Shown piece by piece: positions 1,571-19,252 of a DNA stretch of 25,485 nucleotides. A model generated the notes under the pieces. That model was not told the origin of the DNA, did no database searches, and saw only the letters and a list, made by a program, of their open reading frames with translations. A program made the position numbers and the translations under genes. Numbering within the stretch: position 1 is the stretch's first letter; each line of letters starts with the position of its first letter. Source of the DNA: a virus; the IMG/VR virus record IMGVR_UViG_3300006752_000198, positions 1 to 25,485 of that record. One strand, given 5' to 3'.

Positions 1571-3661
1571 TTATAATCCTGTAATTATTTCTGCTTTGAT
1601 TTTGTTAATATCAATTATAAAAAATCCGCCATCTGAATTTATTAAGTATTCGGGATCTCCGCCAAATTCTTTAGGGTTTTCTCCCATAGCAATCTTATAT
1701 TTACCATTACCAATACTTACAAAATAAGGATCTCTTTCTTTAAATACTTGATCAACTGTAAATTCTTTTCCATTAATCATTGGCAACTGATCATTACTAG
1801 ATGCTTTTTTAAATAATTCTTTACCTTCTGCAGATTTAAAATTTTCTATTACATCTTCAAATTTACCATTAGGTAGCCAAGGTGGTATATGTACCATTGT
1901 ACCTCTAGTGTTAGTATCAAAGCCACCCATCTTAGTATCAAAACCAAATTTCTGTATTGATTTTGCACCTACCGCCATACTAAATGCTTTTTCCCAATCA
2001 CTAGCTTTAAAATTTTTAGTAGTTTTTCCAGAGTTTTTTAATTGAGCTGCATAAATATAATTAGCTGTTTCTACTGCATTATTAAAAGTTTCTAAGTTTT
2101 CTCCAAATACCTCGCTGTATTTACCAATAACATTTAGTAAACCAGTATCTGAACTTTTCATTTTATACTTATCTGCAAGATCTGGCTCTTTAGATAATAA
2201 ATATCCATCAATAGCTAATTTAGCATTATTACCAGCAACACCATCGTTCATCATAGTAAGACCACCAATGTGTGCTAAGAAAGTATTATCTTTTGAAATT
2301 TGTCTAAAAGCTACATCGCTATCTCCACCAAATGCTTGAACTAAAGTAGTTGATAATTGAATTATTTGATTGCCATTTGTTGCACTATCAAATGCAGCTG
2401 TAATTTGTTTAGCCTCGTTTTCAGTAAAAAATTTTACGGGTCTTTTGTAAAAATTTGCAACAGTAGTAGCTTGAGCTATTCTTGATTTTACCTTAGATGC
2501 AAATAAATTCATATCTCCACCTGTTAATAATTGATCAAATCCTATTTCTTCTATTTCTACTAAACCTTTATTTTTTGCAGTAGTTAATTGATCTTTATCT
2601 AAAGATGTAGATAGAGCAGCAAGATACTTTTTAGATATTTCTAAATTTCTAGCATCTTTTAATGACATACCTTTTTTACTGGTATTATTAAAATTAGTTA
2701 AAATATTAATTCTGTTTTCTATTTCAGAAACAGACATTGTATTTAGTTGAGCATAAATAGGAGCATCTTCTTGAATTTTTTTTAATTTTAGAATTGTCGC
2801 CTGGTCATTATTAGTAGTTGCAATAGATAAAGCTGTATTAAATTCATCAACATTAATGTTAATGCCATTTTCAATATTACTTTGCATTTGTGAAACATTA
2901 GCTTTGTTTAAATGATTGCTTGTTGTTGATTTAGATTTAAAATGTGTTTCTAATTTAATAACATCATCTGTAGATAATCGGTCATCTTTTTTAGCTAATT
3001 CTAAGGCTTGATCTTGTTGATTAAGTGGTACTCTTTTGTAACCATAAAATGCTATATCTTTTGCTACTGCACTTTTAACATCTTTAATACCACCACCAAA
3101 TAATTCAGTATTAGATGCAGAATTTAATCTTGTATTTAATTCTATTGTTGCATTATTTTTTTCAAGATCAGATCCTGCAAAAATAACTTTCTTTTTTAAT
3201 GTTTCAATATAATCAAGCTCGGTTGTTTTTCTTCCTTCAATTAGATTTGCAGTAGATTTAACTTTAATTGTGTTACCATCTTCTATTGATTGTTTAGTCA
3301 ACCAAGTATTAAATTTTTTCTTAGAAAATAAACCAGTAAAATCAGAAGTAGAATTTTTAATTTTTTCAACTTCATTATTGTAATAAGCCATAGCTTTATC
3401 TGGATCATCCATCTGTACCGCATTTAATTTAACAGAAGCCAAACCATTTTCGCCATTCATTACAGTTTTAATTTTTTCTAAAACTTCTTTTTCACTTTTG
3501 ATTTCTTGATGTTTGACGTAAAGTTTTTCGCCAGCTTGAGCAAAACCTTTAAATGCTCTACCTACAGCTCCAGCTTCAGACATAGATATTTTTCTTCGGT
3601 CTAAAACATTTGATGATTGGGTTGTTGGTTCTAATTGTGATTTGTATAATTTAATAGCCAT
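1571..3661 (-). CDS. Internal virion protein (T7 gp15-like by position and style)
   Basis: This 696-residue protein starts ATG at 3661, sharing one base with the previous stop (TAATG). It has no signal peptide or membrane segment. It is mostly charged helix with Ser/Thr/Asn-rich stretches and an early segment (residues ~30-75) of coiled-coil type. Length, position after a gp14-like protein and before a larger C-terminal gene, and overall composition fit the second internal virion protein of T7-like podoviruses, which is ejected and helps form the DNA-translocation channel in the cell envelope. No enzyme motif is visible. The family assignment rests mainly on gene order, so the general role is likely but the exact homology is inferred. 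Confidence 0.72.
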   Translation of the reverse strand: MAIKLYKSQLEPTTQSSNVLDRRKISMSEAGAVGRAFKGFAQAGEKLYVKHQEIKSEKEVLEKIKTVMNGENGLASVKLNAVQMDDPDKAMAYYNNEVEKIKNSTSDFTGLFSKKKFNTWLTKQSIEDGNTIKVKSTANLIEGRKTTELDYIETLKKKVIFAGSDLEKNNATIELNTRLNSASNTELFGGGIKDVKSAVAKDIAFYGYKRVPLNQQDQALELAKKDDRLSTDDVIKLETHFKSKSTTSNHLNKANVSQMQSNIENGININVDEFNTALSIATTNNDQATILKLKKIQEDAPIYAQLNTMSVSEIENRINILTNFNNTSKKGMSLKDARNLEISKKYLAALSTSLDKDQLTTAKNKGLVEIEEIGFDQLLTGGDMNLFASKVKSRIAQATTVANFYKRPVKFFTENEAKQITAAFDSATNGNQIIQLSTTLVQAFGGDSDVAFRQISKDNTFLAHIGGLTMMNDGVAGNNAKLAIDGYLLSKEPDLADKYKMKSSDTGLLNVIGKYSEVFGENLETFNNAVETANYIYAAQLKNSGKTTKNFKASDWEKAFSMAVGAKSIQKFGFDTKMGGFDTNTRGTMVHIPPWLPNGKFEDVIENFKSAEGKELFKKASSNDQLPMINGKEFTVDQVFKERDPYFVSIGNGKYKIAMGENPKEFGGDPEYLINSDGGFFIIDINKIKAEIITGL

Positions 3662-4110
3662 TAGCCGCCTCCTCCAAACATAGCTGCAGTATTTAATAAA
3701 CTTTGACCTGCTGCAAAGTAACTAGCTTTTTTAGCTACCTTGCCTCTAAATCTTTCAAGATCTGCGTTTGCTTCCATCATAATTGCTTCATTGTTTGCAG
3801 TATCAACTGCGTTTTGTGCGTTGTAATCCATTATATCTCTGTCAGTTTGCAGCTCTAATTCATTTTCATATAACGCTTCTAAAGGTGTACCAGATAATTC
3901 TACACCACTTGCAAGATAAGCAACTCTTGTAGCTCCTTGTATTTCTTCAACTGTTTTGTCAAACTTAGGTAAAGTATACGCATTATGCGTAGTCATTATT
4001 CGTTTTGCTTCTAATCTTTTTAGTTCAGCATTACGTTCTTCTACCTGCGCATTAAAATCAGCTGCTTTTTGTTGTGCTTTACCTTGATATATATCTCCAA
4101 AAAAACTCAT
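3661..4110 (-). CDS. Internal virion protein (gp14-like), 149 aa
   Basis: The frame is open from 4194, but the better start is ATG at 4110. It overlaps the upstream stop as ATGA (4107-4110), the junction style used throughout this genome, and gives a natural N-terminus, MSFFGDIYQGKAQQ. Residues ~10-45 are a charged coiled-coil-like helix. The stretch ASGVELSGTPLEAL, with D.D and N-A after it, is typical of small podovirus core proteins that carry a conserved Ser-Gly-Thr/Ser-Pro segment before a second helix. The C-terminus is Ala/Gly-rich (FAAGQSLLNTAAMFGGGG), plausible for membrane insertion after ejection. The gp14-like call is from position and these features. Confidence 0.72.
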   Translation of the reverse strand: MSFFGDIYQGKAQQKAADFNAQVEERNAELKRLEAKRIMTTHNAYTLPKFDKTVEEIQGATRVAYLASGVELSGTPLEALYENELELQTDRDIMDYNAQNAVDTANNEAIMMEANADLERFRGKVAKKASYFAAGQSLLNTAAMFGGGG

Positions 4111-4559
4111 TTTATAACCCTCGCATATCTGTAAAAATCTTCTCCATCTGGACCATAAGCCTTCATTAAACCTTCTTGTTTTAAACCTAGCCACTCAGCA
4201 AATCTTATTGCTGTATCGCAATCAGCTTTAACGGATGTTTGTAATCTTCTGATAAAATTATTTTTTATCATCATATCCGTTCTTTGCTTAATAACTTTTG
4301 AAATCGTTATTGGATAGTTATTTATTTCTTTAGTAGCTAAGACCCACCCCTCAGCTGTGCCTTCCCAGAGAGGAAAAATCCCTCCTGCCACAATAGGTTT
4401 ATTATTTAATAATCCTGTAAATGACATTCCAATTTCTTTTAAGTATAAAGAATACTTCCTGTGTTCTGGTTTGAATTCTAATAATTTTTGGTTTAATCCT
4501 TGATCAAGTATTTCTTTTGCATGATCATTTTCAAAAGATACAAATTCAATTTTAGACAC
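4107..4559 (-). CDS. T7 gp13-like protein, GNAT-acetyltransferase-like fold (150 aa)
   Basis: The frame extends up to a TTG at 4589, but GTG at 4559 is preferred. It has GGAGA seven bases upstream and overlaps the tail-tube-B stop by only 8 nt. The protein has the layout of the T7 gp13/DUF2833 group, which resembles N-acetyltransferases: a central strand pair (NKPIVAGGIFPLW, GWVLATKEI), then a long helix with repeated Lys/Arg (ISKVIKQRTDMM), and a C-terminal part with AIRFAEWLGL and the ending FYRYARV. In T7, gp13 is needed for virion assembly and is not a proven enzyme. The neighbours (tail tube B before, gp14-like after) match T7 order. A true acetyltransferase activity is not shown. Confidence 0.75.
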   Translation of the reverse strand: MSKIEFVSFENDHAKEILDQGLNQKLLEFKPEHRKYSLYLKEIGMSFTGLLNNKPIVAGGIFPLWEGTAEGWVLATKEINNYPITISKVIKQRTDMMIKNNFIRRLQTSVKADCDTAIRFAEWLGLKQEGLMKAYGPDGEDFYRYARVIK

Positions 4560-6831
4560 TTTCTGTCTCCAATCTTGGATAGATACCAAGTATAGTCATT
4601 GGCAGCGCTTGTGGTTGTTTGATGTAAATTAATCCTTCTGTTCCGTGTCCGACATCAAATTCAATTTGTTTATCGCCAGTAAATAAAGGTACTGGTAAAT
4701 CCATACTTGCTGAACTATCTCTAAAATCTAAAGATGTTAAATTATCTGATGATGGTCCAATACTAGCTCCAATAGTATCTAAAAATCTTACTGATAAATC
4801 ATAAACTCTTTTTGTTTTAGTCTGAGTAGTTTCTGTGTAACCTTCATCTAATCTCATTGTTTGTAAATCAGATGAATACAATAAACCTACATTTGCCTCT
4901 TCAGTAGCAACATCAATAGTTATTGATCCTCCATTTACTACCTTAGATGTTTGTACGGATCCCTCTCCTATTATGGATACAGTTTCTCCTTCTAAATGAT
5001 TTAAGCCTGTTAAAGTACCAGTTTCTCCACCAGAATAAGTCAAGCCACTATCCATGAAATGAAACTTTGTTAGATCTTTGTTAAATTCAAAAGGAGTAAA
5101 ATATTCAACATATCTTTTTTTAGCTCCATTAATATATCGTTCAACAATAACCCAAACTTGATCCTCGTCTGTATCTCCATCAATTACTGCAACACTTTCT
5201 ACTTTAGCGTGGGTTAGTATTTTATCTATTTGTTCTGAAGAATGAGCTGAGCTTAAATTAATAACAGTATTTAAACCTTCGTCTTTGAATAATTGAAATT
5301 GGTTATCATCTATTTTGGATATATAATATTTAGTATTTTCTGCTAAACCAGTTATTGCCGTTCCAGAATTTTTGTAAAAAATGTGATCTCCTGTTTTAAA
5401 ACCATGTGCAACACTAAAAATAAAATTATTATTTATGTTTACTCCTTGATAAATAAATTGTGTTGTATCGGATCCAGGCGCTGAAGTTAAAGAAATTTCT
5501 GTACCTGCAGATGCGCCAGAAGAAGAGTTTGCTAATTTAATTGTATTTGCATCAACAGATATAACATAATAAACTTTTGAATTACTTAATCCGCCTATTT
5601 TATTAGATGCAGCATAATAATAAACTTGATCTCCAGTTGATAAACCATGTGATGATAAAGTTATTGTATTGTTTGTAGTATTGACGTTTGTTGAATTAGA
5701 TGTGAAAGTAATTTTTTGTTGTTTGATTGTTTTACCTGTATCTGATTTACCGCCTAAAATGTGTCTGTGCCAAGCTACAACATTCTCTAATCTGTTATAA
5801 GTTAAGCCTACTAAAACACCATCATTTCTTACACCCCAAACAACTGAGTAAGGTTCTTGTTGATAATCCATTTGGATAATACCAGTTTCTGAAATGTGAT
5901 CTGCAAGTATGGTTAAATCTGGAGCAACATAACCATCGCTATCAAAATTATAAGCTAGTTCTCTTATTTTTCTTTTTGCTCTTTGTAAAAAAATAGTTGC
6001 ATTACCAATAGACAAAGCATCAACACCAGAAGATCCATAGTTTGATTGCTTAACGATTGAAATATTTGTAGGAGTGATCGCAATTCCAGATCCAGCAGAC
6101 ACAGCATACTCTCCACCAGTAGTCATTACAATAAGAGTTCTTGTAGCTTTCATAGCCTGGATTGCATTAACTTGATTTGATGCGATTGTATAAATCATGG
6201 CATCGTCATCATTTGTACCAGTTGTAAAGTTTTCGTAATCTCCAGCTTTTGAGAACCAAATAGTTTGTGGATTATTATTAGTTCCTGCAAAGACTAATCT
6301 TTGTTCAAAAAAAGTAACTGTACTTGGTCTATTGTTTGATCCAGAAATTCCAGGAGAGGGAGATCCACTAAATGAAACTGTATTAAGTGTCCAGGAAGTG
6401 TGTCCAGTTCTACTTAATTTTTTTACGGGATGGCTTGGATGAACTAAATACATCACGTCAGCAGATTGAGCAAATTTAATATCAAATAACTGTGCTTCTA
6501 AATAAGGAGAAGATATTTCATAAGCGGAACTACCAGATTGGATTTGTCCATCATCTTTATAAAATCTAATATACCCATTTCCAAATTCTAAAATATAGGC
6601 TTGTTCAGTTGAAAAAGTAAAAGGTATAAGTCTTGTTTTTTGTGTACTTGTTTTTACTTCTGCAGCAAAATAAGTTCCTGGTCTCCTAGTTACGGGTCCA
6701 TGTGGTAAAACTACAAAATTTTCAATACGCGTAGCTGCGTTAAAGTATTTTTGAAAATCAGTTCTCCCCTGCATAGAGGATGACATCTCCCCAGCTGTAA
6801 AGCTAGGAATACTTAATAGTTGTTTTCCCAT
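4552..6831 (-). CDS. Tail tubular protein B (T7 gp12-like) with inserted tandem beta modules
   Basis: This 759-residue protein forms the tail nozzle below the gatekeeper ring. The N-terminus has the family signature: PSFTAGEMS, then GRTDFQKYFNAATRIENF, then GPVTRRPGT (residues ~9-52), followed by strand-rich sequence such as RLIPFTFS and YILEFGNGYIRFY. An insertion at residues ~375-535 holds two similar units, each with HG(L/F).TGD followed by YY/FY and a Gly-Leu...YY stretch. These look like small beta-barrel repeats often found in phage tail proteins. It starts 2 nt below the tail tube A stop and ends overlapping the gp13-like gene. Identification is strong; the function of the insert is unknown. 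Confidence 0.9.
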   Translation of the reverse strand: MGKQLLSIPSFTAGEMSSSMQGRTDFQKYFNAATRIENFVVLPHGPVTRRPGTYFAAEVKTSTQKTRLIPFTFSTEQAYILEFGNGYIRFYKDDGQIQSGSSAYEISSPYLEAQLFDIKFAQSADVMYLVHPSHPVKKLSRTGHTSWTLNTVSFSGSPSPGISGSNNRPSTVTFFEQRLVFAGTNNNPQTIWFSKAGDYENFTTGTNDDDAMIYTIASNQVNAIQAMKATRTLIVMTTGGEYAVSAGSGIAITPTNISIVKQSNYGSSGVDALSIGNATIFLQRAKRKIRELAYNFDSDGYVAPDLTILADHISETGIIQMDYQQEPYSVVWGVRNDGVLVGLTYNRLENVVAWHRHILGGKSDTGKTIKQQKITFTSNSTNVNTTNNTITLSSHGLSTGDQVYYYAASNKIGGLSNSKVYYVISVDANTIKLANSSSGASAGTEISLTSAPGSDTTQFIYQGVNINNNFIFSVAHGFKTGDHIFYKNSGTAITGLAENTKYYISKIDDNQFQLFKDEGLNTVINLSSAHSSEQIDKILTHAKVESVAVIDGDTDEDQVWVIVERYINGAKKRYVEYFTPFEFNKDLTKFHFMDSGLTYSGGETGTLTGLNHLEGETVSIIGEGSVQTSKVVNGGSITIDVATEEANVGLLYSSDLQTMRLDEGYTETTQTKTKRVYDLSVRFLDTIGASIGPSSDNLTSLDFRDSSASMDLPVPLFTGDKQIEFDVGHGTEGLIYIKQPQALPMTILGIYPRLETESV

Positions 6832-15415: not shown

Positions 15416-15993
15416 AAAGCCGCCTTTCTAGCGGCATTAAACTTTTTTATAGGTTCATCTTTCTTAAATGAGTGTTTTTGGATCCGATCGCCTTTCCCGT
15501 TGCTATATTCAACATAATGACCTTCGCGACCACACTCTACATACTTTTCTCCGTTATATTCTATAGAATGTTTTGCAATCCCCCCTGTCGATGATGATCT
15601 ATTATAGTTAAAGTTACTTCTATTAAATCTATTATTAGTTTTATAAGATGGTTTTATTAATACACCTCTGTGAGATATATCCCTCCCCTCAGAGAGAGTT
15701 ATCACTCGTTTTTTAATTGTTTCCTGCAATATTTTCTGTGTGGATAATAAGTATAGATTAGTGGAACTTAGTCGTTTTACAGCTATCAACTTTAGCTTGG
15801 CAAGGTGTTTAACTGATCTTTGAATGGCAGCAATACTGATACCTGTTCGCTTCTTAATTGTAGCATATCTTGGATGACACTTTCCATCCTTAACATTCAT
15901 GTAACTAACCAAACAGAAATAAACTAATTTGTCATGTGCAGATAATCGATCATCCGCCAAAATATTTAGATCCCCCACAAAATATAAACTCAT
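15406..15993 (-). CDS. Winged-helix/HTH protein, possible replication initiator (195 aa)
   Basis: The frame is open from 16059, but ATG at 15993 is chosen. It forms an ATGA overlap with the upstream stop and has AAGGA eight bases before it. Residues ~15-75 (RLSAHDKLVYFCLVSYMN, C.PRYATIKKRTGIS, RSVKHLAKLKLIAV) are a typical helix-turn-helix of the HTH_36/RepA-like kind used by phage replication initiators and DnaD-type proteins. A Ser/Asn-rich linker follows. The C-terminal part has two Tyr/Gly beta stretches (YNGEKYVECGREGHYVEYSN). No other replication protein is visible in the window, so this is the best local candidate for origin recognition, with modest certainty. Confidence 0.7.
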   Translation of the reverse strand: MSLYFVGDLNILADDRLSAHDKLVYFCLVSYMNVKDGKCHPRYATIKKRTGISIAAIQRSVKHLAKLKLIAVKRLSSTNLYLLSTQKILQETIKKRVITLSEGRDISHRGVLIKPSYKTNNRFNRSNFNYNRSSSTGGIAKHSIEYNGEKYVECGREGHYVEYSNGKGDRIQKHSFKKDEPIKKFNAARKAALCA

Positions 15994-16382
15994 GCTTGAT
16001 CCTTCTTGGTGCAAACCATATTGTGTCGATCCTGTAGCAGCTCCATTGCTTGAACCCATGCCTCTGGGGTTAGGTTTACTTCTGAACCCTTCTCTGGTGT
16101 CAGCTGCTGCACTCTAAAGCCTATAACTTCATTACCCTTAACCTTATAAAAAACCAGGAAACTTGGTAATCCACACATCCTGGCTAACTTGGCTGTCGTT
16201 GTTGTAGCTTTCCAGGGTTGTCCAACATCAAATGCTGTTTCTTTTAGATACAATGGCTCCTTACATTTTAAACAGATCCCCACTCCATCCATATCGATTA
16301 AACCCAATTTCTGTGGCAAAGCACGATGCCATAAACTATAATCCGAAAATTTTACATCTTTAAAATAAATATCTCTAGCCAT
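15990..16382 (-). CDS. Conserved-looking phage protein, possible degenerate PD-(D/E)XK-like fold (130 aa)
   Basis: The 130-residue protein has DYSLWHRALPQKLGLIDMDG (residues ~14-33), then C.KC, EPLYLKETAFDVG (~41-53), a TTTT-rich helix start and LPSFLVFYKV. An Asp in one strand, Glu in the next, a helix, then a hydrophobic strand recalls small nucleases of the restriction-endonuclease fold, but the Lys after Glu is missing. CLKC (residues ~37-40) may bind metal. It has an 8-nt ATGGCTAG-type overlap with the ORF before it and an ATGA overlap with the HTH gene after it. Function is unknown; nuclease-like is a guess from layout. Confidence 0.6.
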   Translation of the reverse strand: MARDIYFKDVKFSDYSLWHRALPQKLGLIDMDGVGICLKCKEPLYLKETAFDVGQPWKATTTTAKLARMCGLPSFLVFYKVKGNEVIGFRVQQLTPEKGSEVNLTPEAWVQAMELLQDRHNMVCTKKDQA

Positions 16383-17565
16383 TTACCTTCCAATCTTGCT
16401 CAACTTCAAAAGTTAGTTCTTCATCAAACTTAATTTCTTTTAAGAAAGGTTTAATAGTGTTCCAATCCTTAATAGTTGGATAAGAAAAACATTTATCTTT
16501 TCTGAACCAATGCTCAATTTTAGTTTTTGGAATAGAGGTGTTTTTAACTAATTGTTTTATTGATGTATTTTGTTTTAAATAATTAATAAATTCTAATTTT
16601 TTTGGTAATTTTGTTCTAACTTTAAATGGCTTATCGTACTGATCTATTAAATGAGGATTATCTTTTAAAAATTTTAAAGCAACATCTGTAGATAAAGTTA
16701 TTTGCACCCGACTATTAGAGTTTCTATTAATTTTACCTCTTAAAATTTTAGCAGCATAAATAAAACTTTCTTCGCCAGTATCCATAGCTGTTGGGGTTCT
16801 ATACATTTGTTTCTGCCTCAATGATTGCTTTTCCAATTTCTCTTGCGATTTGTGGAACGATTGAGTTTCCGAGTGATTTAATTCTGTTGGCTCTATCTTT
16901 GTCCAGTTCTGCGGATAACCCATTAACATCTCCACAAAGTTCGGATTGAGTTTGCCACCAACTTTGGGTTCCAAAAACTCCATCGCATCCTGTAGTCTTG
17001 CTCCGTATGTCATGTGTGGCTTGTTTTTCTTTCTCAGAATAAAACCCCCAGATTTTGTCCGTTCCACTCTTTCCGATTGTGGAGTGTTGATATTCGTTGC
17101 GTTGGGAGTTGGGTACATCGCCATTGTTTGTGGATCCATTTGCTCCCTTAGATTGCAAGGTTTCGTTCTGCCTTTTCGATGACCCATCATTAATTTTAAT
17201 GTTCCCTTCTTTGATCTCGGAGGAAGATGATCCATAGTGTTTGGAGTAGCCAAGTATCCAGACCCTTTTTCTTTGATGCCACGCACCGACACCGCTAGCT
17301 GGAATAATAAGACTTTGCGTTTCGAAACCTTCGCTTTCCAAGTCATCGTGGATCTGTCTGAACACCATGCCGTCTTGGATGTTAATAATCCCTTCAACAT
17401 TTTCGCCAATAAACCATTTAGGTTTTTGCTCGGATACAATTCTAATAGTTTCATCCCAGAGGAAGCGATCATCATCTGTTCCCTTTCTTTTTCCTGCAAC
17501 GGAGAAAGGTTGACACGGGAACCCTCCAGTAATGACATCTGCTCTAAATTTTTCTCCTTTGACAT
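16375..17565 (-). CDS. Second ORF overlapping the methyltransferase in the +1 frame; C-terminal 143 aa extend beyond it
   Basis: This 396-codon frame shares 767 nt with the methyltransferase in another frame, then continues alone for 424 nt. In the overlap it reads TMTWKAKVSKRKVLLFQLAV (residues 73-92), GYLATPNTMD, MYPTPNAT and LNPNFVEMLMGYPQNWT (206-222). These patterns recall proteins that accompany phage cytosine methylases. The last part holds MYRTPTAMDTGEESF (254-268) and a helix-turn-helix-like IKQLVKNTSIPKTKIEHWFR. The first ATG (17565) has AAGGA directly abutting it. A safer alternative start is ATG at 16806, which overlaps the methylase stop by 8 nt and gives 143 aa. Whether the overlapped part is made is open. 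Confidence 0.6.
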   Translation of the reverse strand: MSKEKNLEQMSLLEGSRVNLSPLQEKEREQMMIASSGMKLLELYPSKNLNGLLAKMLKGLLTSKTAWCSDRSTMTWKAKVSKRKVLLFQLAVSVRGIKEKGSGYLATPNTMDHLPPRSKKGTLKLMMGHRKGRTKPCNLREQMDPQTMAMYPTPNATNINTPQSERVERTKSGGFILRKKNKPHMTYGARLQDAMEFLEPKVGGKLNPNFVEMLMGYPQNWTKIEPTELNHSETQSFHKSQEKLEKQSLRQKQMYRTPTAMDTGEESFIYAAKILRGKINRNSNSRVQITLSTDVALKFLKDNPHLIDQYDKPFKVRTKLPKKLEFINYLKQNTSIKQLVKNTSIPKTKIEHWFRKDKCFSYPTIKDWNTIKPFLKEIKFDEELTFEVEQDWKVNG

Positions 17566-17725
17566 TCCTTACATCATCCTCGATTGGTATATTTGGAAAA
17601 TTTTTTTGTAATACTTTTTGGCAAAATTTATCTTTTTCAACAAAACCAATAGTTTTAAAAAATCCTGTGCTTTCCAAACCAAGACTAAAACCACCAATAC
17701 CAGAAAATAAATCAAGTACATTCAC
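16799..17725 (-). CDS. DNA cytosine-C5 methyltransferase (Dcm type)
   Basis: This 308-residue enzyme would transfer methyl from S-adenosylmethionine to cytosine C5, probably protecting phage DNA from restriction. Motif I is DLFSGIGGFSLGL (residues 5-17), motif IV GGFPCQPFS with catalytic Cys71, motif VI ENV (108-110), motif VIII QRKRVWI (151-157) and motif X GNSIVPQIA (from 286). The presumed target-recognition region (~161-260) is short and Ser/Asn/Gly-rich. It begins with GTG at 17725 in a GTGA overlap with the coiled-coil gene and has AAGGA upstream. The recognition sequence cannot be read from the protein. No partner endonuclease is visible, so it appears solitary. Confidence 0.9.
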   Translation of the reverse strand: MNVLDLFSGIGGFSLGLESTGFFKTIGFVEKDKFCQKVLQKNFPNIPIEDDVRNVKGEKFRADVITGGFPCQPFSVAGKRKGTDDDRFLWDETIRIVSEQKPKWFIGENVEGIINIQDGMVFRQIHDDLESEGFETQSLIIPASGVGAWHQRKRVWILGYSKHYGSSSSEIKEGNIKINDGSSKRQNETLQSKGANGSTNNGDVPNSQRNEYQHSTIGKSGTDKIWGFYSEKEKQATHDIRSKTTGCDGVFGTQSWWQTQSELCGDVNGLSAELDKDRANRIKSLGNSIVPQIAREIGKAIIEAETNV

Positions 17726-17922
17726 AAACCCCCATCCTTACGGAAACCATTAAGAGGATCTTTCAGCTGCTTATTTTCTTTTTGCAAACCATCAATTATT
17801 GTTTTTAAATTTTTGTTTTCTTCGCTCAGCCTATCTATTTCTTTTTTAAAATTATCAGTTTCTTTTGACTTAGCTTTATTCTTATCAATCACATGAAAGT
17901 GAGCTGGCGTTAATTCTGTCAT
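17722..17922 (-). CDS. Small coiled-coil protein (66 aa)
   Basis: Residues ~22-55 (FKKEIDRLSEENKNLKTII and on to ENKQLKD) have a clear heptad pattern with Leu/Ile at a/d positions, so the product should dimerise as a coiled coil. The first 20 residues and last 10 are polar. Both ends use 4-nt overlaps: ATGA with the 95-aa gene and GTGA with the methyltransferase. It has no recognised family. Tight coupling to the methyltransferase could mean a partner or regulator of that enzyme, which is speculation. Confidence 0.62.
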   Translation of the reverse strand: MTELTPAHFHVIDKNKAKSKETDNFKKEIDRLSEENKNLKTIIDGLQKENKQLKDPLNGFRKDGGL

Positions 17923-18206
17923 TTGTTAAAAATAATTTCTGTTACTTCCTGTACCCAACCGCCAGGAATAGTGTTTGTGTTACCTACAGTTAAAGATCCA
18001 TCCTCCATGTCATAAGAATAGTCTGCAAATATTGTAATTACTTTTTTATTTCTAACCAGGAGATGACCCTTGCTTATACAAATTGCTGGCTCAATTTTTG
18101 ATGCTCTGGCTACTGTCATCCAGGAATTATCAGCAATACAATCCAACCATTTAACTTCTACAAATGGATAATCAGCTATCGTTCCTGTTACTTTTGTTTT
18201 AGCCAT
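17919..18206 (-). CDS. Small hypothetical phage protein (95 aa)
   Basis: The sequence is strand-rich: FVEVKWLDCIADNSWMT (residues ~15-31), then ICISKGHLLVRNKKVITIFADYS split over ~43-65, and IPGGWVQEVTEI at the end. This arrangement (V.V.WLD, G.L, IP.GWV..V) recalls small beta proteins common in phage early regions with no known function. It has no membrane segment. It starts with an 8-nt overlap (ATGGCTAA) with the Cro-like gene and ends in an ATGA overlap with the coiled-coil gene, so it belongs to the leftward operon under the switch promoter. Confidence 0.65.
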   Translation of the reverse strand: MAKTKVTGTIADYPFVEVKWLDCIADNSWMTVARASKIEPAICISKGHLLVRNKKVITIFADYSYDMEDGSLTVGNTNTIPGGWVQEVTEIIFNK

Positions 18207-18396
18207 AAAAACTAGATGGTAATACTTTGCCTTTTGTTTTAGATTTAATTAGATCCATGTACTTGGGTCGAGGAATTCGATCTCCAACACACCATCTACA
18301 AACTGTACTCTCTGGAGAAACTCCAGTAAGACCAAAAAACTTTGCTAATTCTTTATGGGAAAAACCTTTTTTTTTTCTAAATTCTTCTAATTTCAT
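18199..18396 (-). CDS. Cro-like helix-turn-helix regulator (65 aa)
   Basis: The frame is open upstream to 18489, but ATG at 18396 gives a normal Cro-sized protein and leaves the switch region free for promoters. Residues ~3-35 (EEFRKKKGFSHKELAKFFGL, then ESTVCRWCVGDRIPRP) form an XRE-type helix-turn-helix with recognition helix around STVCRWC. It is the first gene leftward from the divergent region opposite the CI-like repressor, the classical place for Cro. No clear ribosome-binding site lies close to the ATG. A role in shutting off the repressor gene or early genes is inferred from layout. Confidence 0.75.
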   Translation of the reverse strand: MKLEEFRKKKGFSHKELAKFFGLTGVSPESTVCRWCVGDRIPRPKYMDLIKSKTKGKVLPSSFYG

Positions 18397-18413
18397 ATAT
18401 TTTTTGCTTTTAT

Positions 18414-18422
18414 TTATCCTTA
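18414..18422 (+). promoter_or_regulatory. Candidate operator half-site TTATCCTTA
   Basis: This is one of four TTATCC-containing elements placed around the repressor gene (also 18464-18472, 19270-19279, 19293-19302). It sits in the leader of the Cro-like gene. Support is repetition and location only. Confidence 0.4.
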
Positions 18423-18463
18423 CCTTATTGTCAATGAATATGCGGAACTTAGTTATGTATAAA

Positions 18464-18472
18464 TAGGGATAA
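18464..18472 (-). promoter_or_regulatory. Candidate operator half-site TTATCCCTA (minus strand)
   Basis: Read on the minus strand this matches the TTATCC element. It lies between the Cro-like and repressor starts, upstream of a weak TATACA that could be a leftward -10, so a bound repressor would block leftward transcription. Confidence 0.4.
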
Positions 18473-18496
18473 CTGTATGATTTAAACAACTTCTAA

Positions 18497-19252
18497 ATGT
18501 ATCATAAGGGAACTGTTGACATATCAAACTACAAATACTACTTTGACATTATGACAATAAAAAACAAATTCACGCTTATTAAAAATGATATACTAAAAAC
18601 AGCTGATCATAAAAAAGAAACTATGGCTTTATTAAAAAAATTATTACTTGAAAAAGACATGACGCAACAAGATTTAGCTCGTCTTTTACATAGAGATAAA
18701 ACTACAATTAGCAGATGGTCTAATGACAGTAGAGAAATTAACTGGGAGAACGCAGTTAAAATTGCAGATGCTTTAAATATTCATCCTGTTGAAGTTTATA
18801 TGCCTAAAAAAGATATTTATTTAAGATGGTATGTTGATGCAAAATATGAAGTCAAAATGTATAACGAAAAAGATCAAATTAAAATTAGAATACCTTATGA
18901 ATATTACAATAAAGACGTAATAGCTGTTCAAGTAAATGTACCAGGCTCTTATACTGACGGAGAAATTTTTTTGTTTGATATACCAAAAATTAAAAAATTT
19001 AGCAGCTTAGCTATAGGTAAATATTGTTATTGTACCTCCTCTACTAAATATAAGAAAAAAAATAAAAATGCTAAAAATGTTATAGGTATTTTAAAAACTA
19101 ATGATGATTATTCGTTGACTATTATAAATCCAATAACAAGAAAACCAATAAATGAAGCGTCTGTAAGTTTTCAACCAGAAGATTTAGGTATCGCAACACC
19201 AGTTAAAGTTAGATACCACCCATATTTTTTAAATCAAAAAGTTACAACCTAG
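18497..19252 (+). CDS. CI-like repressor with XRE helix-turn-helix
   Basis: The longest frame has 251 residues. Residues ~43-100 are an XRE helix-turn-helix (LLLEKDMTQQDLARLLHRD then KTTISRWSND). The C-terminal half (~108-245) is beta-rich with VIAVQVNVPGSYTDGEIFLF (141-160), which has the layout of the LexA/CI S24 domain but no catalytic Ser-Met or obvious Lys. It faces the Cro-like gene across the switch and precedes the recombination operon. The start is uncertain: ATG 18497, ATG 18551 (233 aa, ten-odd bases after a TTGACA-N17-TACTTT) or ATG 18623. None has a clear ribosome-binding site. It would maintain lysogeny. Confidence 0.82.
   Translation: MYHKGTVDISNYKYYFDIMTIKNKFTLIKNDILKTADHKKETMALLKKLLLEKDMTQQDLARLLHRDKTTISRWSNDSREINWENAVKIADALNIHPVEVYMPKKDIYLRWYVDAKYEVKMYNEKDQIKIRIPYEYYNKDVIAVQVNVPGSYTDGEIFLFDIPKIKKFSSLAIGKYCYCTSSTKYKKKNKNAKNVIGILKTNDDYSLTIINPITRKPINEASVSFQPEDLGIATPVKVRYHPYFLNQKVTT

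What the first reader, a model, noticed from the sequence alone, without database searches (positions are those of the whole stretch)
16799..17565. Methyltransferase gene and a second conserved-looking ORF overlap for 767 nt in different frames
Both frames look constrained. The methylase frame has motifs I, IV, VI, VIII and X. The +1 frame is open for about 255 overlapping codons and reads TMTWKAKVSKRKVLLFQLAV over methylase motif VIII and LNPNFVEMLMGYPQNWT near motif X, patterns I recall from proteins linked to phage cytosine methylases. Where the +1 frame looks most motif-like (LATPNTMD, YPTPNAT), the methylase frame is low-complexity Ser/Asn/Gly/Gln. That suggests the frames trade constraint: overprinting, or a +1 frameshift fusing the two. 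A caution: this stretch is less AT-rich than its surroundings and antisense frames are also long, so chance openness is possible.
Basis: partly seen in the sequence, partly recalled or inferred. Interest (0 to 1): 0.85.

Follow-up and report, generated by a model that had tools for sequence, protein, structure and literature searches.

The report
DNA methylase encoded in two frames
A phage DNA-methylating enzyme is written as two overlapping genes in different reading frames, one carrying the catalytic core and the other the part that should choose the DNA target; the layout recurs in many phages, where the second gene is often unannotated, and it resembles the known two-protein enzyme M.EcoHK31I.

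Summary
Observation confirmed: a C5-cytosine methylase gene (MT, 16799-17725, minus) and a +1-frame ORF (OV, 16375-17565, minus, 396 aa) overlap by exactly 767 nt. Both appear to be real genes. In 94 non-redundant homologous loci, most fetched by methylase similarity alone, the +1 ORF is open, starts at about the same place and usually has a ribosome-binding site (81% versus 9% at other ATGs). MT has motifs I-VIII and X but no motif IX, and its target-recognition (TRD) stretch is modelled as disordered. OV carries the motif-IX-like block, just upstream of MT's motif X. Codon-position divergence switches frame: MT's over motifs I-VIII, OV's over the TRD and IX, MT's again at X. Canonical C5 methylases show no switch. 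OV's extra C-terminal domain is found elsewhere inside DNA methyltransferases, in the region where the TRD lies. Best reading: a split methylase with alpha (MT) and beta (OV, TRD plus IX) subunits translated independently from overlapping genes, like M.EcoHK31I. The overprinting idea is supported and the frameshift-fusion idea is not. New here: an apparent TRD on beta, TRD cassette exchange, the appended TRD-like module and the breadth in phages. Expression, complex formation, specificity and homology to M.EcoHK31I are untested.

The parts
16799..17725 (-). MT (alpha): C5-cytosine methyltransferase ORF, 308 aa, motifs I-VIII and X, no motif IX
   Evidence: PF00145 1e-56, TIGR00675 2.8e-48; HhaI-like over its first 167 residues
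16375..17565 (-). OV (beta): +1-frame ORF, 396 aa, candidate TRD and motif-IX subunit with a C-terminal module
   Evidence: phrog_1008 1e-19; conserved in 94 non-redundant loci
17261..17713 (-). MT catalytic core, motifs I (DLFSGIGGF) to VIII (QRKRV)
   Evidence: profile alignment to canonical methylases over residues 1-164; AlphaFold pLDDT mostly about 90
16904..17227 (-). MT residues 167-274: predicted disordered, low-complexity linker where a canonical methylase has its TRD and motif IX
   Evidence: pLDDT below 50; MT dNN/dSN 0.93
16808..16894 (-). MT motif X segment (RIKSLGNSIVPQIA...)
   Evidence: confident helices 278-306; invariant G286-N287, P291
17577..17580 (-). candidate Shine-Dalgarno (AGGA) 11 nt before the OV ATG; 4 nt here, AAGGAG/GGAGG in many relatives
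17569..17571 (-). TAA in the OV frame, with one codon between it and the OV ATG, so the ORF cannot be read into from upstream in that frame
16957..17247 (-). OV residues 107-203: candidate TRD with LATPNTMD and YPTPNAT elements
   Evidence: MT position 1 (= OV position 3) diverges fastest here; mosaic exchange between close relatives
16897..16956 (-). OV residues 204-223 GKLNPNFVEMLMGYPQNWTK: motif-IX-like block directly upstream of MT motif X
   Evidence: hhalign places it on canonical motif IX (E=0.077); best PSSM window; pos3/pos1 0.25
16378..16776 (-). OV C-terminal module (residues 264-396), outside the overlap; found inside the TRD region of other phage methyltransferases
   Evidence: 7 phage matches, 6 in annotated DNA methyltransferases and 1 in an unannotated record; position checked in 4; pLDDT about 90-95 over 321-390

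Best explanation
The two ORFs encode the two subunits of one C5-cytosine DNA methyltransferase. Alpha (MT, frame 0) has the catalytic motifs I-VIII and X, joined by a disordered linker. Beta (OV, frame +1) supplies what alpha lacks, the target-recognition domain and motif IX, and in this phage also a C-terminal DNA-recognition-like module. Beta is translated independently from an internal ATG inside the alpha gene and the subunits assemble; beta sets the target sequence. The overlap probably arose when the TRD-IX part of a single-chain methylase moved into the +1 frame while I-VIII and X stayed in frame 0. Shown by sequence: conserved overlap, start-site signals, frame switch of divergence, absence of motif IX from MT and a counterpart in OV. 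Inferred: translation of OV, assembly, specificity role, evolutionary route.
For: 1) +1 ORF open in 94 non-redundant loci, with a nearly fixed start. 2) Match of 5 nt or more to the anti-SD upstream of the OV ATG in 81% versus 9% at other ATGs; codon 54 is AAT or GAT (both keep the ATG) in 71 of 72, never AAC, though AAC is 37% of upstream Asn codons. 3) MT pos3/pos1 divergence: before overlap 2.18, IV-VIII 1.57, TRD 0.77 [0.70-0.86], IX 0.25 [0.12-0.45], motif X 2.12; canonical control 3.14, 1.87, 1.40, 4.01; K1H family also drops in the TRD, to 0.98. 4) MT aligns to canonical methylases over motifs I-VIII only, with disorder in 167-274. 5) OV 204-223 falls on canonical motif IX and is the best PSSM window in all 20 representative OVs. 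6) Over four seeds, 220 overlap-type loci: motif-IX-like block in +1 in 179, motif IX in frame 0 in none; canonical: 66 of 70 in frame 0, none in +1. 7) MT frame stays open through the TRD where about 7 stops would be expected if only OV were preserved. 8) OV's C-terminal module lies between motifs VIII and IX of C5 methylases and inside an N4/N6 methylase in other phages. 9) TRD stretch exchanged between loci with near-identical catalytic DNA.
Against: No expression or interaction evidence. OV folds poorly alone (mean pLDDT 57, no significant PDB match) and no complex could be modelled. The motif IX profile match is weak (probability 0.7%, E=0.077) and PSSM p-values are only 0.007-0.1 per sequence. 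No constraint on OV's N-terminal ~100 residues was shown: the synonymous-rate reduction there is the same in the canonical family. OV dNN/dNS of 0.4-0.48 is no lower than the canonical baseline of 0.43-0.58. Clear whole-TRD swaps are few (5 pairs). The window's own SD is only 4 nt.
Confidence: 0.82

Rival explanations
1. Programmed frameshifting makes one fused methylase: frame 0 for I-VIII, +1 for TRD-IX, then back to frame 0 for X.
For: Ancestral motif order would be restored, and IX (+1) ends about 10 codons before X (frame 0), close to canonical spacing.
Against: Needs two shifts in opposite directions. OV has its own conserved ATG, SD and often an adjacent upstream stop, and MT is kept open through the TRD; neither is needed for a frameshift product. 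No slippery-site search was made.
Confidence: 0.05
2. OV is real but is not part of the methylase: an unrelated overprinted accessory protein, for example an anti-restriction factor or inhibitor.
For: Its N-terminal part has no recognised domain and the model is poor.
Against: Motif-IX-like block in register with MT motif X, absence of IX from MT, and a C-terminal module otherwise seen inside DNA methyltransferases.
Confidence: 0.08
3. The +1 frame is open only as a by-product of methylase amino-acid composition.
For: A canonical family also has about 160 open +1 codons, mostly over motifs IV-VIII; null +1 runs average about 100 codons.
Against: Openness through TRD and IX, frame switch of divergence, SD and start conservation, and no equivalent in canonical families over TRD-IX.
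Confidence: 0.02
4. A split C5 methylase as proposed, but with the TRD on alpha and only motif IX on beta, as the literature states for M.EcoHK31I.
For: That is the published motif assignment for M.EcoHK31I (PMC3404938).
Against: MT is modelled as disordered over that stretch, MT dN/dS is about 1 there, and divergence follows the OV codon.
Confidence: 0.08

Closest known systems
M.EcoHK31I (YGGCCR), natural two-polypeptide C5 methyltransferase
   Same: Larger polypeptide has motifs I-VIII and X, smaller one has motif IX, and two polypeptides make the enzyme (PMC3404938). From memory (Lee, Kam and Shaw 1995, not held here), the smaller polypeptide is encoded inside the larger gene in another frame.
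   Different: The TRD is reported on the larger subunit; here selection and modelling put it on the +1 product, which also bears a C-terminal module. Sequence homology could not be tested: the EcoHK31I sequence was not found or fetched.
M.AquI (CYCGRG), two-subunit C5 methyltransferase
   Same: Methylase split so that motif IX is on a second polypeptide.
   Different: AquI is split once, with IX and X together on the small subunit; here X stays on alpha and only TRD-IX moves.
Phage records with both frames annotated: Redbud 'g50 internal gene', K1H 'Mte8-like' inside 'C-specific methylase'
   Same: Same nested +1 layout with a motif-IX-like block in +1.
   Different: Named only as ORFs or methyltransferases; those records give no subunit role. 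Window OV is longer, with the extra module.
Single-chain C5 methylases (HhaI; phage MM1 family)
   Same: Same catalytic motifs I-VIII and X.
   Different: TRD and IX are in the same frame; +1 is full of stops beyond motif VIII.
ShiLan-type hidden HNH insertion in phage methylases (PMC11855218)
   Same: An out-of-frame ORF inside a phage methylase gene.
   Different: That is an inserted homing endonuclease with a patchy distribution; OV is part of the methylase locus itself and is present in all 94 homologous loci compared.

Membership tests
C5-cytosine DNA methyltransferase (PF00145) | Catalytic motifs I, IV (PCQ), VI (ENV), VIII (QRxR) and X in MT | tested here: met
C5-cytosine DNA methyltransferase (PF00145) | TRD and motif IX in the same polypeptide | tested here: not met
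   no motif IX in MT frame; residues 167-274 modelled as disordered
M.EcoHK31I-type split methylase | Motif IX on a second polypeptide while X stays on the first | tested here: met
   individually weak motif scores, strong frame switch
M.EcoHK31I-type split methylase | Second polypeptide encoded within the first gene in another frame | tested here: met
   sequence: 767-nt overlap, here with OV running on past the MT stop; for EcoHK31I itself this feature is from memory
M.EcoHK31I-type split methylase | Both polypeptides required for methylation | not testable with these tools
   needs expression and assay
M.EcoHK31I-type split methylase | Sequence homology to EcoHK31I alpha and beta | not tested
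   EcoHK31I sequence not available; original paper not held
M.EcoHK31I-type split methylase | TRD on the larger subunit (as published) | tested here: not met
M.AquI-type split methylase | Motifs IX and X together on the small subunit | tested here: not met
   X is in MT
Programmed frameshift fusion | No independent start for the second frame | tested here: not met
   conserved ATG and SD
phrog_1008 | OV matches the family profile | tested here: met
   1e-19 over OV 2-165; its 'DNA methyltransferase' label is an annotation only

The most novel reading that the evidence does not exclude
In this large phage family, the reading-frame overlap serves specificity evolution. The alpha frame over the TRD is a tolerant linker, so exchange of one DNA cassette replaces the TRD on beta without harming alpha, and a portable module (also seen inside C5 and N4/N6 methylases) can be added to beta. 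It would be a two-gene, overlapping counterpart of Type I specificity-subunit shuffling, used by phages to change their methylation pattern.
Probability: 0.35. Interest if true: 0.75.

Novelty: new variant of a known kind. Interest (0 to 1): 0.6.

Why it matters
The nested beta ORF recurs in 220 overlap-type loci from four phage methylase families, and OV has no Pfam or NCBIfam model, so many phage methylases annotated as single genes are probably missing half the enzyme. Cloning 'the methylase' alone would then give an inactive or unspecific protein. It offers long overlapping genes in which constraint passes from one frame to the other at motif boundaries, and a testable case of how target specificity is exchanged when two proteins share the same DNA.

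Tried and rejected
OLGenie-like dN/dS for OV first looked supportive (0.2-0.48), but the canonical control gave 0.43-0.58, so it was set aside for the codon-position test. Openness over motifs IV-VIII was dropped as evidence for the same reason. Structure of OV: only the C-terminal module is confident; no PDB fold match at E<=0.001. PDB, Pfam and NCBIfam profile searches with OV found no relative. A Lokiarchaeota genome hit (L129) carries runs of N over the key region, so it was not used. Literature searches for a phage-wide description found none in the open-licence library; absence there is weak evidence.

Full report
WHAT IS THERE. The window is a 25,485-base virus record. On the minus strand MT runs 17725-16799 and OV runs 17565-16375; they overlap by 767 nt, OV being +1 relative to MT. 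The ORF upstream (17722-17922) ends in a GTGA overlap with MT's start, and the ORF downstream (15990-16382) begins 8 nt before OV ends, so OV, not MT, is the neighbour of the next gene. Other ORFs match phage repressors, an integrase, replication initiation and head and tail families, which suggests a temperate tailed phage.

THE METHYLASE FRAME. MT is a C5-cytosine methyltransferase (PF00145 1e-56). Profile searches align it to HhaI residues 12-178 and to a canonical methylase alignment over MT residues 1-164, that is motifs I-VIII. Motif X (SLGNSIVPQ) is present. AlphaFold gives a confident core and motif X helix, but residues 167-274 are below pLDDT 50. No motif IX is found in the MT frame in any of 220 overlap-type loci, while it is in frame in 66 of 70 canonical methylases. 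These counts rest on simple regular expressions.

THE +1 FRAME IS CONSERVED. OV is found in 68 phage records and 41 viral contigs; in nearly every locus mapped it overlaps MT in the same relative frame, the exceptions being fragments or matches to the C-terminal module alone. Starting instead from MT gave 80 loci, again with the +1 ORF open. In 94 non-redundant loci the ORF nearly always starts around MT nucleotide 145-180. Synonymous shuffles give p<=0.001 in 84 of 94. The start has a ribosome-binding-site match of 5 nt or more in 81%, against 9% at other ATGs in the same genes. MT codon 54 is AAT in 67, GAT in 4 and never AAC, so the ATG is kept in 71 of 72.

WHICH FRAME IS CONSTRAINED WHERE. 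An OLGenie-like count was checked against a canonical family, and the OV statistic dNN/dNS proved uninformative. A model-free comparison of divergence at the three codon positions is clear. MT position 3 diverges fastest before the overlap and over motifs IV-VIII (ratio to position 1: 2.18, 1.57). In the TRD stretch position 1, which is OV position 3, is fastest (0.77, interval 0.70-0.86). In the motif IX stretch the ratio is 0.25 (0.12-0.45). At motif X it returns to 2.12. The canonical family keeps 3.14, 1.87, 1.40 and 4.01. The K1H family shows the same drop in the TRD (0.98), less sharply; its IX-X interval is wide (0.77-1.93). MT over the TRD has dN/dS near 1 (0.93) but no stops, where about 7 would be expected if only OV were kept: MT is read through, as a linker. 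Together these say that both frames are translated. They do not show constraint on OV's N-terminal part.

WHAT OV IS. Its conserved block GKLNPNFVEMLMGYPQNWTK is placed by hhalign on canonical motif IX (weak score, E=0.077, but the expected column) and is the best-scoring window in all 20 representative OVs. It ends about 10 codons before the G-N of motif X, close to the 12 or so of canonical enzymes. The C-terminal module (residues 264-396) has seven phage matches: six in proteins annotated as DNA methyltransferases or methylases and one in an unannotated Staphylococcus phage record. In the four proteins examined, three C5 methylases carry it between motifs VIII and IX and an N4/N6 methylase carries it inside the PF01555 match. 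That is where target-recognition regions lie. Only 14 of 94 loci have the extension, and it was gained or lost at least 5 times (11 by parsimony) on the MT tree.

SPECIFICITY EXCHANGE. L049 and L071 are 95-100% identical over the catalytic DNA, 55-75% over the TRD stretch and 95% over IX-X. Of 139 pairs with at least 95% catalytic identity, 7 have a TRD at the shuffled level of identity, 5 of them with IX-X still at least 85% identical; none of 32 canonical pairs does. This is suggestive, not abundant.

MECHANISM. Best supported: alpha (I-VIII, X) and beta (TRD, IX) translated separately and assembling into one methylase. A double programmed frameshift, an unrelated overprinted protein, and chance openness were weighed and fit less well (see rivals). 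The role of beta in target choice is inferred.

RELATION TO KNOWN SYSTEMS. M.EcoHK31I has motif IX on a separate smaller polypeptide (PMC3404938); that this is nested in another frame is from memory. The arrangement here works like it, but homology was not tested, and the apparent TRD position differs. Some phage records already annotate both ORFs. The family is broad: the K1H, Rhynn and Paenibacillus seeds and the window family total 220 loci with the layout, and isolated examples occur in bacterial genomes. It was rare in one phylum sampled: 7 of 296 genomes matched at all, several of them canonical methylases.

LIMITS. No expression data, no complex model, no EcoHK31I sequence; the literature search covered open-licence papers only.

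Noticed in passing
L048 (IMGVR_UViG_3300037714_000152) about 3290-4150: About 860 bp inserted between motifs VIII and IX; both the MT and OV frames are interrupted, and unrelated short ORFs lie inside. Nature of the insert not determined.
   Followed up: partly
L002 (KT997847) 3800-4714: MT is split by a frame change near residue 40, so the record annotates two methylase pieces; OV-frame similarity continues.
   Followed up: no
L161 (Paenibacillus polymyxa pAP1) 1251-2741: The +1 frame holds two copies of the motif-IX-like block (GQLNPTWVECLMGFPLDWT and GQLNPAWVECLMGFPLGWT), separated by stops.
   Followed up: no
L157 (phage MM1) 1601-2026: An annotated 'putative methyltransferase' ORF lies inside a canonical methylase gene in another frame; motif IX is in frame 0 there, so this ORF may be spurious.
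   Followed up: partly
L129 (Candidatus Lokiarchaeota chromosome record): A piece 73% identical to OV's C-terminal half next to runs of N in an archaeal genome record; possibly viral DNA, a prophage or misassembly.
   Followed up: partly
window 18199-19252: Divergent pair of repressor-like genes (18199-18489 minus, 18497-19252 plus) upstream of the methylase operon, with an integrase at 23793-24947: a lysogeny-control-like arrangement.
   Followed up: no
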